Below are positions 624 through 40,497 of a stretch of DNA of 64,000 nucleotides, piece by piece; position 1 is the stretch's first letter; every line of letters starts with the position of its first letter. The notes under the pieces are model-generated. The model worked only from the letters and a program-made list of their open reading frames with translations, made no database searches and had not been told where the DNA came from. Origin of the DNA: Lanius collurio (lineage: Eukaryota > Chordata > Aves > Passeriformes > Laniidae); contig JACBWW010000046.1 of the NCBI GenBank assembly GCA_020086605.1, positions 6,086,133 through 6,150,132 on the forward strand. The letters are read 5' to 3'. The translations under genes and the position numbers were made by a program.

Positions 624-629
624 ACTAAG
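624..629. repeat. Left target-site duplication of the ERVK-like element (ACTAAG)
   Basis: ACTAAG sits directly against the outer end of the left LTR and is repeated exactly at 3290-3295. A 6-bp duplication is typical of class II (ERVK/betaretrovirus-like) integrases. The exact match shows the element is complete and was inserted by its integrase. Confidence 0.93.
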
Positions 630-924
630 TGTTTAATGGGGAATCCTTACAACATATATAAGACGGCAATGAATGTTGGAAGGAAATATGAAGCGATATT
701 TTTATAGATGTTCAGAGATGTTTTACTCCTCCAGCCGCATGGCTGGAGTTCCCAGGCAGACCCTCCAGTCATGGGACCCTGCTCTCTTCCCGGGCCCCGG
801 GCACCCAAACCACCCAATCAGGAACAGGTATGGGGCACATGTGACATGGGGACAGGGAGCAGAGACAGACCCGTACACTGCAGGGTCCCTCCCCCCGGGA
901 CTTCAGGGGAGAGGTACCTCCACA
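630..924 (-). repeat. 3' LTR of the ERVK-like element
   Basis: 295-bp LTR. On the minus strand it begins TGTGGAGGTACC (924 downward) and ends ATTAAACA (at 630). It aligns along its whole length with the 5' LTR at 3006-3289, with scattered substitutions and small indels. The polyadenylation signal, AATAAA in the 5' copy, is AGTAAA here (plus TTTACT at 722-727). The last bases lack one G compared with the other copies. An 8-bp-stem palindrome (CTCCAGCC-GCAT-GGCTGGAG, 729-748) lies next to the poly(A) signal. Confidence 0.92.
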
Positions 925-943
925 ATACACCCTTTCTTTTTAG
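925..943 (-). other. Polypurine tract of the ERVK-like element
   Basis: Directly upstream of the 3' LTR on the minus strand is the purine run AAAAAGAAAGGG followed by TGTAT. This is the expected place and composition for plus-strand DNA priming during reverse transcription. It confirms that the element reads on the minus strand. Confidence 0.7.
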
Positions 944-1236
944 ATAAAATGAGCATTGGATACAGTTGGATAAACAACAAAACAATTTCAAAAGAAAGGA
1001 AGCCACTATCTTGAGTCCCCAAATGTCCAAACAGATTCTCTTTGGAGCATCAGAAGGGAGAGAGGACTTGAGCATGCTTCAGATGGAAACTGAGTCAGGA
1101 GTGGGTTTTTTCCTTTCTGTACCTGTTGGAATCTTAGAAAATGACAGTTAATTTCTTCCCTCCTTCCTTTTCATCCCCCCATTGGCATTGCAAAGGGATT
1201 CATGGTGAATGGAAAAGCCTGGTTTTGTGAGGGGAA
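944..1236 (-). other. 3' internal tail of the element, possible env-end remnant
   Basis: Segment between the cold-shock frame and the polypurine tract, read on the minus strand. One frame near 940-1010 gives a short hydrophobic, Leu/Cys-rich stretch followed by basic residues. That resembles the membrane anchor and cytoplasmic tail at the end of a retroviral Env, but the match is too short to assign. There is no A-rich tail here, which argues against the Y-box segment having arrived as an ordinary LINE-made processed pseudogene. Confidence 0.3.
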
Positions 1237-1617
1237 CTACAAAGGGAAATTTGGGCTGGGCATATATGGGAGATAAAGGGGCATGGGATAAAAGGGGAAG
1301 GTGGGATAGGGGAAAGAATAGGGATTATGGGGATATTGTCTAGCATATCTACTGCCTTTGACAGGGACACCCCCAGGGCCTGTAAAACATGCGGCCTGTG
1401 GGCCCTTCCTTCCTTGCACAATTTTAAATGCCACCCTTTCTCCTCCTTCTAAGCTTGGAACATTACTTTTGGGGTTATTTTTCACAATAGCAGATTTATG
1501 GACAAAAATACTTTTTCCTGTATCATTTTTCAATAAGAAACCATAATTTTTCTTTACGTTATACCGTTTAACAGTTCCAAAAACCTTAGCTGCGATAATT
1601 TTTTTCATTTTCTGCAT
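1237..1617 (-). CDS. Y-box-type cold-shock-domain protein captured by the LTR element
   Basis: Open frame of 126 codons on the minus strand. Residues about 4-92 match the cold-shock domain of vertebrate Y-box proteins (YBX1/2/3), a five-stranded OB fold that binds single-stranded RNA and DNA. The RNP1 strand reads NYGFLLKND where Y-box proteins have a GYGFINRND-like motif. RNP2 reads IFVHKSAI, and the Y-box hallmark TGPGGVPV is intact near residue 80. By eye about 55-60% of domain residues match the vertebrate consensus as I remember it. The conserved Trp of the KWFN motif is Arg (KRYN), so stacking may be altered. After the domain the basic/acidic tail of YBX proteins is missing. Instead there is a roughly 34-residue Pro/Tyr/Phe-rich tail, then TAG. 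The frame stays open upstream to about 1731 through a Gly/Pro/Ser-rich stretch without an ATG, so the Met at 1617 is the first in-frame start. Human YBX1 is about 324 aa, so this is a domain-sized fragment. Whether it is expressed is unknown. Confidence 0.8.
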   Translation of the reverse strand: MQKMKKIIAAKVFGTVKRYNVKKNYGFLLKNDTGKSIFVHKSAIVKNNPKSNVPSLEGGERVAFKIVQGRKGPQAACFTGPGGVPVKGSRYARQYPHNPYSFPYPTFPFYPMPLYLPYMPSPNFPL

Positions 1618-2237
1618 TCCCTTGTTCTTACTTTCACTTTTGGTTTTGCTCGCTCTCGCGCTGGAGCTGCCGCAGCCAGGACCACCAGGGCCAGGGCCGC
1701 CAGCGCGTTCCTGCCGCAGGGTTTTGACTCCTCAGGATCGCGTTTGGGGCCGCGCAGGTCCGGTCTGGCTGTGCTGGTGCATGCCACCACCTTTGGCCCC
1801 CTCTGCTGCTTAATGCTGTGCATTAAACACAAAGCTGCTCCGCCTTTGGCCCCCTCTGCACCGCTGCTTGGCGCTGTGCTCGCTTCTGCTCTGGAGCTCC
1901 ATGCGACTGCAGCTCCACGCTTTCTGGTCTTTAGCATGGCTGCGCCCTGTAAGGCGTTCTGTTCCAGCACGTGTGCGTGGCTTTGTACCGCCAGCGCTGC
2001 CGCCGCTGCTGCTGCTGTCAGCTACAGATGTGTCGCTGCTGGGCGCTAGCGTGATTCTCACCCCCACGCCGCTCCGGCTCGGTTTGGCGTGGCTCACTGC
2101 GGTCGCCATTGTGACTGCCGCTAGCGCCGCTGCCTTTCTCGCTCTGGGGCTCGGGCTCGGACTGTTGCTTGCCACGCGGCGCGGGGCAGCCACCACCGGG
2201 ACGCGCCTCTGCTGCCGCCACTCTCACCACTGCCCTC
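1618..2237 (-). other. GC-rich segment upstream of the cold-shock frame, probable captured 5' part of the host gene
   Basis: Strikingly GC- and CpG-rich compared with the AT-rich flanks. On the minus strand it holds several short frames rich in Ala, Ser, Gly and Arg. One begins with a good Kozak context (CACAATGGC near 2109) and stays in the cold-shock frame, but stops at 1810-1812 and again near 1732. Y-box genes have Ala/Gly/Pro-rich, GC-rich N-termini and 5' UTRs, so this may be the rest of the captured transcript, now broken. No residue-level match to a known N-terminus was recognised. The motif CTTTGGCCCCCTCTGC occurs twice (about 1792 and 1844), marking an imperfect local duplication of about 50 bp. 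Confidence 0.45.
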
Positions 2238-2321
2238 GCTGCTGCCCTCACAGCTCATGCCTCTGCTTTTGCTGCTCGCGCCTCTGCTCTCGCAGCTCGT
2301 GCTTCTGCTCTCATGGCTCGC
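2238..2321 (-). repeat. Four tandem 21-bp repeats encoding a heptad
   Basis: Units at 2238-2258, 2259-2279, 2280-2300 and 2301-2321. The last three are close matches (GCCTCTGCTCTCGCAGCTCGT type on the plus strand) and the first is more decayed. On the minus strand two frames give seven-residue repeats rich in Ala/Glu/Arg or Glu/Arg/Gln, which would favour a charged helix or coiled coil. Retroviral Gag proteins often have such charged linkers. The repeats lie between the gag remnant and the cold-shock frame, so they could belong to either. Confidence 0.7.
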
Positions 2322-2407
2322 TATATGCGTTTTTCAGCAGCTATTTGTACTGTCTGTCCTTCTTTATTCACTCTAAGAATACCTCAGAGACCCCTAGGAA
2401 TGCACTC

Positions 2408-2880
2408 TCACATCCAGTGTCTTTGTCGTCGCTCTCTCACCCGCTGTCGCTCGGGAGTGCACTCTGATACAGGGATGGGGCCTGCTCTACGGCTTGTGCT
2501 TTTAGGGGGGCTGGGCCCCTCCACCGCAGGCACCTCAGCCACAGGCACCTCTGTGTTACTGGGACCGAGTATATGCTTTATGAGAGCATCTTCAATTGCA
2601 AAAGAAGCTAGGATCAATTCTACTGCCATTCCACTTCTTGATTGAATCATTATCAACTCATCGATTTCTTTCCAAAAATTGTCCCCTCTAGTTACAGGAA
2701 AACCAACATCAAAAATTATGTCTTGAGTAACATAAAAGAAATTTTTGAAAAGCTAGTTGAAGAAAAGTGTTCTAAATGTCCTAGGTCCAGTTTTGCATTT
2801 TGTTTCGCTAGAATTTCTTTCACTTCTAAGTACATTTTTCTCTGTGGCTCAGATAGCCACAGCTCCTCTGATTTCTCCAT
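2408..2880 (-). pseudogene. Broken gag start (matrix/p10-like) of the ERVK-like element
   Basis: An ATG at 2880 follows the leader about 125 bp after the LTR, where gag should begin. The first frame runs to a stop at 2716 and the similarity then continues in another frame at 2408-2656. At least one frameshift and in-frame stops therefore break it. Residue pattern and spacing (amphipathic N-terminal helices, a Trp-led helical segment after the break) resemble the betaretroviral Gag p10/matrix domain. A Pro/Glu-rich linker and an Arg-rich end follow. Capsid, nucleocapsid zinc knuckles and all of pol are missing. This copy cannot encode a working Gag. The family call rests on pattern only. Confidence 0.5.
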
Positions 2881-2925
2881 CTGGTGAGAAAGTACAGCCA
2901 AAAACAAGACAATAAGAAAGTTCAA

Positions 2926-2933
2926 TTACTCAC
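2926..2933 (-). promoter_or_regulatory. Candidate major splice donor in the element leader
   Basis: The minus strand reads GTGAGTAA between the primer-binding site and the gag ATG. This matches the vertebrate 5' splice-site consensus and lies where retroviruses keep the major donor. It could let the cold-shock frame be made from a spliced mRNA, as env usually is. No acceptor was assigned with confidence. Confidence 0.35.
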
Positions 2934-2985
2934 AATTCACATCAATGTACTCCGGACCTTTAGAAATCGTTTTCAGGGATCGAAT

Positions 2986-3003
2986 GTTCGCATATCTCCA
3001 CCA
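2986..3003 (-). other. tRNA primer-binding site, tRNA-Ala-like
   Basis: Two bases inside the 5' LTR, the minus strand starts TGGTGGAGAT. This is complementary to the 3' end of tRNA-Ala(UGC) as I remember it, including its CCA. The next eight bases diverge. The 2-nt spacing from the LTR is normal for retroviruses. Confidence 0.55.
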
Positions 3004-3005
3004 TT

Positions 3006-3289
3006 TGTTGTAATGGGGAATCCTTACAACAAGTATAAGATAGCGATGAACTTGGAAGGAAAGATGAAGCGATATTTCTGTAGATGTTCAGAGATGTTTT
3101 ATTCCTCCAGCCGCATGGCTGGAGTTCCCAGCAGACCCAGTCACAGGATCCTGCTCTCTTTCTGGGCCCGGTCCCCCCAAACCAACCGATCAGGAACAGG
3201 TATGGGGCACATGTGACATGGGGACAGGGACAGACCTGTACACTGCAAGGTCCCTCCCCCTGGGACTTCAGGGGAGAAGCACCTCCACA
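3006..3289 (-). repeat. 5' LTR of the ERVK-like element
   Basis: 284-bp LTR that on the minus strand begins TGTGGAGGTGC (3289 downward) and ends CATTACAACA at 3006. It has the usual TG...CA ends. The minus strand shows an inverted CCAAT-like motif in U3. A poly(A) signal AATAAA (plus TTTATT, 3098-3103) lies next to a perfect 8-bp-stem palindrome at 3105-3124. The same family recurs at 630-924, 22473-22716 and 40203-40497. Confidence 0.93.
3098..3103 (-). promoter_or_regulatory. Polyadenylation signal AATAAA in the 5' LTR
   Basis: AATAAA on the minus strand, just past a conserved hairpin-forming palindrome. It is kept in the solo LTR at 40203-40497 but mutated to AGTAAA in the 3' LTR of this element. 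Confidence 0.65.
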
Positions 3290-3295
3290 ACTAAG
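3290..3295. repeat. Right target-site duplication of the ERVK-like element (ACTAAG)
   Basis: Exact copy of 624-629, directly outside the 5' LTR. Confidence 0.93.
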
Positions 3296-22472: not shown

Positions 22473-22716
22473 TGTTGCAGTGAGGGGAATCCCACAACAA
22501 TATATATGACGACGATGGAGTTGGAAGGACAGATGAAGCAGTATTTTTGCAGATGTTCAAGGATGATTTTATTTCTCCAGCCGCATGGCCGGAGTTCCCG
22601 AGCAGACTCCTCTGACCTTCTCCTCCCCGCCAGCTCCCAGGCACCCAAACCACCCAATCAGGAACAGGAATCGGGCACACGTGACCTGGGGACAGGAACA
22701 GGGATGTACCTCCACA
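22473..22716 (-). mobile_element. Solo LTR of the same ERVK-like family
   Basis: 244-bp LTR closely related to those at 630-924 and 3006-3289 and in the same orientation. On the minus strand it runs from TGTGGAGG to GCAACA. It is about 40-50 bp shorter in the U3 part. The poly(A) signal is AATAAA (plus TTTATT near 22568), followed by the hairpin palindrome (CTCCAGCC-GCAT-GGCCGGAG), where one changed base would give a G-U pair in RNA. Exact 6-bp TSDs show a clean solo LTR. Confidence 0.9.
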
Positions 22717-40202: not shown

Positions 40203-40497
40203 TGTGGAGGTGCCTTCCCCTGAAATCCTGGGGGGAAGGGACACTGCAGGGTACGGGTCTGCCTCTGTCCCTGCTCCCATGTCATTTGTGCCCCATGCCT
40301 GTTCCTGATTGGGTGGTTTGGGTGTCTGATGCCCGGGAAGAGAAGAGGGTCCCGTGACTGGGGTCTGCCTGGGAACTCCGGCCATGCGGCGGGAGGAATA
40401 AAATAATCCCTGAACATCTAAAGAAATATCGCTTCATCTGTCCTTCCAAGTTCATTGCTGTCTTATATATGTTGTAAGGATTCCCCTCATTACAACA
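40203..40497 (+). mobile_element. Solo LTR of the same ERVK-like family, plus orientation
   Basis: 295-bp LTR from TGTGGAGGTGCC to CATTACAACA, full length and in the opposite orientation to the other copies in this window. It shows the family's inverted CCAAT motif (GATTGGGTGG near 40308), the hairpin-forming palindrome around 40377-40396 with one stem mismatch, and AATAAA just after it. The flanking 6-bp duplication has one mismatch. Confidence 0.9.

What the first reader, a model, noticed from the sequence alone, without database searches (positions are those of the whole stretch)
624..3295. LTR retrotransposon that transduced a Y-box cold-shock domain
Seen: two related LTRs, exact 6-bp TSDs, a primer-binding site, a polypurine tract and a broken gag start, all reading on the minus strand, with a cold-shock-domain frame in the same orientation inside. 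Known: transducing retroviruses replace viral genes with spliced cellular coding sequence, and Y-box proteins bind RNA and DNA through this domain. Inferred: a passerine ERVK-like element captured a Y-box gene in the germline lineage. I know of no described avian ERV with a cold-shock domain, though I cannot search. The missing A-tail and shared orientation argue against a nested LINE-made pseudogene.
Basis: partly seen in the sequence, partly recalled or inferred. Interest (0 to 1): 0.92.

Follow-up and report, generated by a model that had tools for sequence, protein, structure and literature searches.

The report
Retrovirus-derived repeat carrying Y-box domain
A retrovirus-derived repeat found at 182 or more places in one (likely songbird) genome carries, about where a retrovirus would have its capsid, a predicted RNA-binding cold-shock domain that was likely captured once from a host Y-box gene, and codon statistics indicate that the domain was kept under selection while the repeat spread.

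Summary
624-3295 is a 2.66-kb LTR element on the minus strand: 6-bp target duplications, two related LTRs, a tRNA-Ala-type primer site, a purine tract, a gag-position N-terminal domain broken over two frames, and an open frame with a cold-shock domain (CSD) closest to Y-box proteins. It is not a one-off: 190 scored CSD matches in the same genome merge to 182 places; first looks list 1,042-1,304 candidates. All 20 copies read with context show LTR - 5' segment - linker - CSD - tail - LTR, with no room for pol or env. Two further copies have one open frame (503-506 aa) joining N-terminus and CSD. Uncharacterised crow and scrub-jay proteins share the layout. All element CSDs tested form one clade (98/99). 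Variants shared among copies favour third codon positions, private ones do not (p = 1.2e-4; LTR control p = 0.91); fixed differences between the two subfamilies show no such bias. Best reading: a non-autonomous ERV lineage that swapped capsid/nucleocapsid for a captured Y-box CSD, likely to bind its own RNA, using reverse transcriptase in trans (inferred). Donor paralogue, helper and retroviral class are unresolved.

The parts
3290..3295 (.). target-site duplication (CTTAGT in element sense) at the 5' end of the element
   Evidence: identical to 624-629
3006..3289 (-). 5' LTR
   Evidence: 257 of 296 columns identical to 630-924
2986..3003 (-). primer-binding site, tRNA-Ala(AGC) type, decayed in this copy
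   Evidence: 18/18 in L024 and L025, 17/18 in L014 and L019, 10/18 ungapped here
2881..2985 (-). leader
   Evidence: 85-95% identical in the nine type A copies
2550..2880 (-). gag-position N-terminal (matrix-like) segment, type A, split over two frames
   Evidence: ORFs 2716-2925 and 2408-2752; 1,081 first-look candidates, 150 scored; matrix identity by position only
1606..2549 (-). Arg/Gly/Ser-rich linker with 21-nt repeats around 2205-2318
   Evidence: repeat families D1 and D5; the linker is open in L049 and L050
1342..1605 (-). Y-box-type cold-shock domain; W65 of YB-1 is R in this copy
1237..1341 (-). start of the Tyr/Pro/Phe-rich tail within the open frame
925..941 (-). purine tract just before the 3' LTR
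630..924 (-). 3' LTR; Y-box-like motif CTGATTGG (as CCAATCAG on +) at 814-821
624..629 (.). target-site duplication at the 3' end of the element
   Evidence: identical to 3290-3295
40203..40497 (+). further LTR copy of the family, without internal sequence in the window
   Evidence: 83-88% identical to the two LTRs
22484..22709 (-). further, shorter LTR copy of the family
   Evidence: 77-80% identical

Best explanation
This is one decayed copy of a multi-copy, retrovirus-derived repeat family without pol or env that encodes a Gag-like protein in which a Y-box cold-shock domain, likely captured once from a spliced host Y-box mRNA, sits about where capsid would be and is predicted to bind the element's own RNA. 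Shown: the LTR-bounded anatomy, a tRNA-Ala-type primer site, the same order in all 20 copies read with context, a single open frame joining N-terminus to CSD in two copies, one clade for the element CSDs tested, and a third-position bias of shared CSD variants that private variants, LTRs and the 3' tail lack. Inferred: capture by template switching between a packaged Y-box mRNA and an ERV genome, at the cost of capsid, nucleocapsid, pol and env; the MA-linker-CSD protein coats or protects the element's transcript, as YB-1 is reported to do for retroviral RNA; reverse transcriptase, integrase and perhaps capsid come in trans from other ERVs in the same germ cell; recombination later swapped 5' halves between subfamilies.
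For: Family and anatomy: 40 DNA and 150 protein CSD matches scored, 182 places after merging; 20 of 20 copies with the same order; single frames in L049 and L050, and 10 of 150 matches in frames of 499-509 codons. Primer site. 24 of 150 N-terminal (type A) matches have a listed CSD 1,028-1,232 bp downstream, 2 of 2 more that were read carry it, and 0 of 150 has a listed capsid match within 4 kb, against 4 of 5 Gag_p10 controls at 639-822 bp. One CSD clade, 98/99. Selection: private variants 63/58/52 over codon positions 1/2/3 with 9 stops, shared variants 12/11/34 with none, Fisher p = 1.2e-4; LTR p = 0.91, tail p = 0.84. RNA-contact residues W65, F74, F85, H87 kept in 35, 35, 35, 34 of 37 copies (their role is recalled). 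Same layout in crow and jay proteins. Pol-bearing ERVs with frames up to 1,119 codons exist. YB-1 and retroviral RNA: PMC6040738, passages.
Against: RNA binding, packaging and mobilisation are untested. The 43 fixed CSD differences between the two subfamilies (29 replacement, 14 silent; positions 16/9/18) show no third-position bias and are close to the 69-70% replacement expected from random mutation, so constraint on that branch is not shown by them. The N-terminal segments give no significant bias (p = 0.25 and 0.34). No profile identifies the N-terminal segment as matrix (profile comparison with Gag_p10 2.5% probability, P = 0.018). No helper with the same LTR or leader was found. All match lists are capped, so missing capsid matches are weak evidence.
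Confidence: 0.7

Rival explanations
1. The captured domain works on the host rather than on the element's RNA: it acts as a transcription factor on the LTR (which has a Y-box-like site in U3), or disturbs host mRNP control or silencing in germ cells.
For: CTGATTGG is exact in 41 of 58 LTRs of the window's group, and its window ranks 21st of 299 in agreement between groups. PMC6040738 (passages) says YB-1 binds the RSV promoter. The selection data fit any function of the domain.
Against: The site is exact in only 2 of 25 LTRs of the other group. Fusion to a gag-position N-terminus in L049 and L050 fits assembly or RNA handling better.
Confidence: 0.18
2. The CSD is a passenger: the element moves in trans through its LTRs, primer site and leader, and the domain has no role.
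For: Elements without pol can move in trans (recalled). Many copies have broken frames. Fixed CSD differences between subfamilies show no silent-site bias.
Against: Third-position bias of shared variants and no shared stop, absent in LTR and tail controls; open frames of 499-509 codons in 10 of 150 matches; retention in crow and jay proteins.
Confidence: 0.09
3. A LINE-made processed Y-box pseudogene landed in one ERV copy.
For: Intronless CSD inside an ERV in the window.
Against: 182 places, and the same LTR - CSD - LTR order in 20 of 20 copies; own clade.
Confidence: 0.01
4. The domain comes from another cold-shock protein (LIN28, CSDE1 or a bacterial Csp), not from a Y-box gene.
For: Such structures also match.
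Against: Y-box structures lead by far: 7.5e-29 against 2.6e-10 for the best bacterial one and 3.6e-4 for LIN28. In one search the named cellular proteins among the 120 listed are mostly Y-box proteins, many named YBX2.
Confidence: 0.02

Closest known systems
Crocodilian ERVs with captured KIT-ligand (CrocERV29) and nectin3 (CrocERV31), PMC4299795 (passages)
   Same: ERV lineages with an intronless host coding sequence, several copies, and purifying selection on the captured frame.
   Different: There the captured genes are a ligand and a surface protein, added or replacing env, and six nectin3 insertions are named; here an RNA-binding domain is fused in frame behind a gag-position N-terminus, pol and env are gone, and 182 places are listed.
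Acutely transforming avian retroviruses (v-onc capture; recalled)
   Same: Host mRNA in place of viral genes; dependence on a helper.
   Different: Those are short-lived exogenous viruses with growth-control genes; this is a long-lived germline family.
Crow ERVK subfamily corCorLTRK1b, the 2.25-kb NDP insertion, PMC7341801 (passages)
   Same: Length (2.25 against about 2.5 kb) and LTR length (296 against 284-295 bp), in a corvid; crow proteins of this family exist.
   Different: The paper does not mention a cold-shock domain (0 occurrences in its main text), and its sequence could not be compared here.
Cellular Y-box proteins YBX1/YBX2/YBX3
   Same: Ungapped CSD with the RNA-contact residues kept.
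   Different: 52-60% (window's subfamily, out-of-frame rows left out) or 66-73% (diverged subfamily) CSD identity to YB-1; a Tyr/Pro/Phe-rich tail instead of the basic/acidic C-terminal domain.

Membership tests
Endogenous retrovirus / LTR element | Paired LTRs, target duplication, primer site, purine tract | tested here: met
   Window copy and 20 of 20 fetched copies have LTRs on both sides; a 6-bp TSD was found by script in 10 of 21 (7-bp in 2, 4-bp in 2, none in 7); primer site and tract
ERVK / betaretrovirus-like class | 6-bp target duplication | tested here: met
   Window copy and 9 of 20 others; not exclusive to this class
ERVK / betaretrovirus-like class | Gag_p10 matrix profile | tested here: not met
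   No Gag_p10 match; profile comparison 2.5% probability
ERVK / betaretrovirus-like class | Placement by pol phylogeny | not testable with these tools
   The elements have no pol
Y-box cold-shock domain | CSD closest to YBX proteins, with RNA-contact residues | tested here: met
Y-box protein (whole) | Basic/acidic C-terminal domain | tested here: not met
   Tyr/Pro/Phe-rich tail instead
Gene-transducing retrovirus | Host coding sequence without introns, replacing viral genes | tested here: inconclusive
   CSD continuous over 88 codons and no room for pol or env; host YBX1 C-terminus appears as separate stretches on C64, but its CSD exons were not mapped
Gene-transducing retrovirus | Mobilised by a helper retrovirus | not testable with these tools
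   Pol-bearing ERVs exist; none linked

The most novel reading that the evidence does not exclude
An ERV lineage rebuilt its Gag by replacing capsid and nucleocapsid with a host Y-box domain and so became a capsid-less, self-coating ribonucleoprotein parasite of other ERVs; in (likely songbird) germlines it outnumbers the pol-bearing ERVs that it exploits, and the hooded-crow NDP plumage insertion is one of its members.
Probability: 0.3. Interest if true: 0.93.

Novelty: new variant of a known kind. Interest (0 to 1): 0.86.

Why it matters
Host-gene capture by retroviruses is known mostly for growth-control genes in defective exogenous viruses (recalled) and for a ligand and a surface protein in crocodilian ERVs (PMC4299795, passages). 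Here a host RNA-binding domain became part of the Gag-like protein of a long-lived, highly amplified element and diversified. YB-1 is a recurring cellular cofactor of retroviruses (PMC6040738, passages), so this would be a retroelement that made the cofactor its own. It makes testable whether a Gag-like protein can do without capsid and zinc-knuckle nucleocapsid, and how defective elements come to outnumber pol-bearing ones. If the crow NDP insertion belongs here, the family also touches a well-studied speciation trait.

Tried and rejected
Viral contigs (IMG/VR) scans with the CSD frame and with an N-terminal frame found no relative. The first protein search with the window's 164-aa frame gave 2 hits, both invertebrate CSD proteins; length limits shut out longer relatives. 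Solved structures with the N-terminal profile: 0 matches up to E = 10. Naming the donor paralogue was dropped: many names are YBX2, but element CSDs are within a few percent of equal identity to YBX1, YBX2 and YBX3, and the tree does not place them with one of these. Autoregulation through the Y-box-like site is weak. One type A match on C27 lies 2.9 kb upstream of an RT-thumb match in the same strand, as gag to pol would in a full provirus, but no capsid match is listed between them and its DNA could not be fetched; left open. Papers: the listings (titles and starts of abstracts) showed no paper on an ERV or LTR element with a cold-shock domain; subscription papers, preprints and Repbase/Dfam were not searchable.
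Full report
What is in the window. On the minus strand, 624-3295 is an LTR element with exact 6-bp duplications, LTRs of 284 and 295 bp (257 of 296 aligned columns identical), a primer site two bases after the 5' LTR, and a purine tract before the 3' LTR. Between them lie a leader, a gag-position N-terminal segment split over two frames, an Arg/Gly/Ser-rich linker with 21-nt repeats, and a 164-codon open frame. That frame holds a cold-shock domain (Pfam 5.1e-17); the best solved relative is zebrafish YB-1, 7.5e-29, ungapped over 89 residues.

It is a family. The window's genome is held (1.097 Gb, 2,132 contigs). The CSD frame as DNA gave 40 scored matches of 1,042 first-look candidates, all 89-100% identical over nearly the whole frame. 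The YB-1 CSD as protein gave 150 scored matches of 1,304 candidates, all at E <= 2.8e-27. Merged, the 190 matches are 182 places. Scored counts are lower bounds; candidate numbers are only indicative. Some contigs look like haplotype pairs (the window's copy recurs at 100% on C45), so distinct insertions may be about half of what the candidate numbers suggest.

Architecture of copies. I fetched 20 copies (ranks 3, 5-18, 20-22, 24 and 27 of the 40) with about 4.7 kb on each side. All 20 have LTR - 5' segment - linker - CSD - tail - LTR. Over these and the window copy, length is 2.39-2.97 kb, except 4.08 kb in L009, which has extra sequence. Nine of the 20 have the window's leader and N-terminal segment (type A). 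The other eleven have a different 5' part; in nine of them protein comparison finds a diverged N-terminal segment (type B, 21-50% identical over matched stretches), in L010 and L017 none. Aligned peptides of both types share motifs in their first half. Twenty further loci (L029-L048) came from the protein search: most have LTRs about 66-84% identical to the window's over matched stretches and CSDs 66-73% identical to YB-1. L032, L043 and L046 combine a type A segment (89-91% identical DNA) with the diverged CSD, so the halves have recombined. L023 lies inside another, inverted copy.

The protein. In L049 and L050, fetched because the match table showed long frames, one frame of 506 and 503 codons runs from the N-terminal segment through linker and CSD to a Tyr/Pro/Phe-rich tail; 10 of 150 scored matches lie in frames of 499-509 codons. 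The four corvid proteins share N-terminal segment, linker and CSD; P0005 starts 15 columns later and P0004 ends after the CSD. A search from the CSD and tail of P0005 gave 289 proteins, 120 listed: two more corvid entries, the unnamed P0009 (a YBX2-like protein) and P0010 (a YB-like CSD with a tail of the same style), then cellular proteins mostly named Y-box, many YBX2.

Where the CSD sits. Of 150 scored type A matches (1,081 candidates), 24 have a listed CSD 1,028-1,232 bp downstream in the same strand; the one other close pair is the nested L023 case. Two more, picked for long frames, were read over 451 bases each and both carry it. None of the 150 has a listed capsid match (150 scored of 261 candidates) within 4 kb downstream, while 4 of 5 betaretrovirus-type matrix matches have one at 639-822 bp. 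The lists are capped, so the contrast with the control counts more than the absence.

Selection. 39 of 43 rows gave a gapless CSD. L013 and L023 were dropped because part of the domain is out of frame, and L048, intermediate, was left out: 17 and 19 copies in two groups. Private variants fall 63/58/52 on codon positions 1/2/3, with 9 stops; variants shared by three or more copies fall 12/11/34, with none (positions 1+2 against 3, Fisher p = 1.2e-4). The same count on LTRs (55 rows) and on the 3' tail (27 rows) shows no shift (p = 0.91, 0.84). The N-terminal segments (14 rows each) lean the same way without significance (p = 0.25, 0.34). Mean pairwise dN/dS is 0.35, 0.38 and 0.36 within group I, within group II and between them. 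Against this, the 43 differences fixed between the groups are 29 replacement to 14 silent, at positions 16/9/18, close to random expectation (69-70% replacement), so that branch shows no constraint by this count and may reflect relaxed or adaptive change. Copies were picked by similarity, and rows are related, so p-values are guides. The YB-1 contact residues (recalled) W65, F74, F85 and H87 are kept in 35, 35, 35 and 34 of 37 copies; the window's own copy has lost W65.

Origin. In a tree of 32 CSDs the element sequences of this genome, crow, jay and P0010 are split by a 98/99 branch from the Y-box proteins included, so one capture followed by divergence is the simplest reading. The tree has 88 columns, one row (human YBX3) is from recall, and the donor paralogue is unresolved. 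The element CSD is continuous over 88 codons. Host YBX1 shows up on C64 as two stretches of its C-terminus about 0.5 kb apart; its CSD exons were not mapped.

Priming and age. The genome's tRNA-Ala(AGC) gene predicts the primer site: of 23 rows, 2 match 18/18, 2 match 17/18, 2 match 14-15/18, 2 match all of the 12 bases printed, and 15 match 8-12/18 without gaps, several of them apparently by a one-base shift. LTR divergence is 0.028-0.168 over 21 elements, 0.124 in the window. With the rate quoted in PMC7341801 (0.0158 per site and million years, passage) the window copy is about 4 million years old; with 2-3e-9 per site and year (recalled) about 20-30 million.

How it likely works. The elements have no room for pol or env. 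Pol-bearing ERVs with long frames are present (253 first-look candidates for RT thumb), fewer than the CSD candidates. I infer that the MA-linker-CSD protein binds the element's RNA and that reverse transcription and integration come in trans. PMC6040738 (passages) reports that YB-1 stabilises HIV RNA, regulates MLV vector and MMTV production in an RNA-dependent manner, and binds the RSV promoter; this is the ground for the mechanism, not a test of it.

What is known. Capture of host mRNAs by ERVs is documented in crocodilians (PMC4299795, passages). No listing showed an ERV or LTR element with a cold-shock domain; only open-access papers were searched.

Noticed in passing
window 22484-22709 and 40203-40497: Two more LTR copies of the same family without internal sequence, so three insertions of the family lie in 64 kb.
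   Followed up: partly
L023: A copy inserted into another, inverted copy of the same family.
   Followed up: partly
LTRs, e.g. window 814-821: Y-box-like motif CTGATTGG in U3: exact in 41 of 58 LTRs of the window's group, 2 of 25 of the other.
   Followed up: partly
G000 C27:12509777-12512885: A type A N-terminal match 2.9 kb upstream of an RT-thumb match in the same strand; a possible pol-bearing relative, not read.
   Followed up: no
G000 C45 and C46: Two contigs that look like haplotypes of one chromosome in opposite orientation; several matches occur as such pairs.
   Followed up: no
P0010, unnamed source: A protein with a more YB-like CSD and the same style of tail, but no recognised N-terminal segment; possibly an earlier form of the captured gene.
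   Followed up: partly
L049, P0003, P0006, P0010 against NCBIfam: Their CSDs also match the bacterial retron Se72 effector model (5.0e-7 to 9.9e-6, below its cut-off), another reverse-transcribing element with a cold-shock protein; probably a general CSD match.
   Followed up: no
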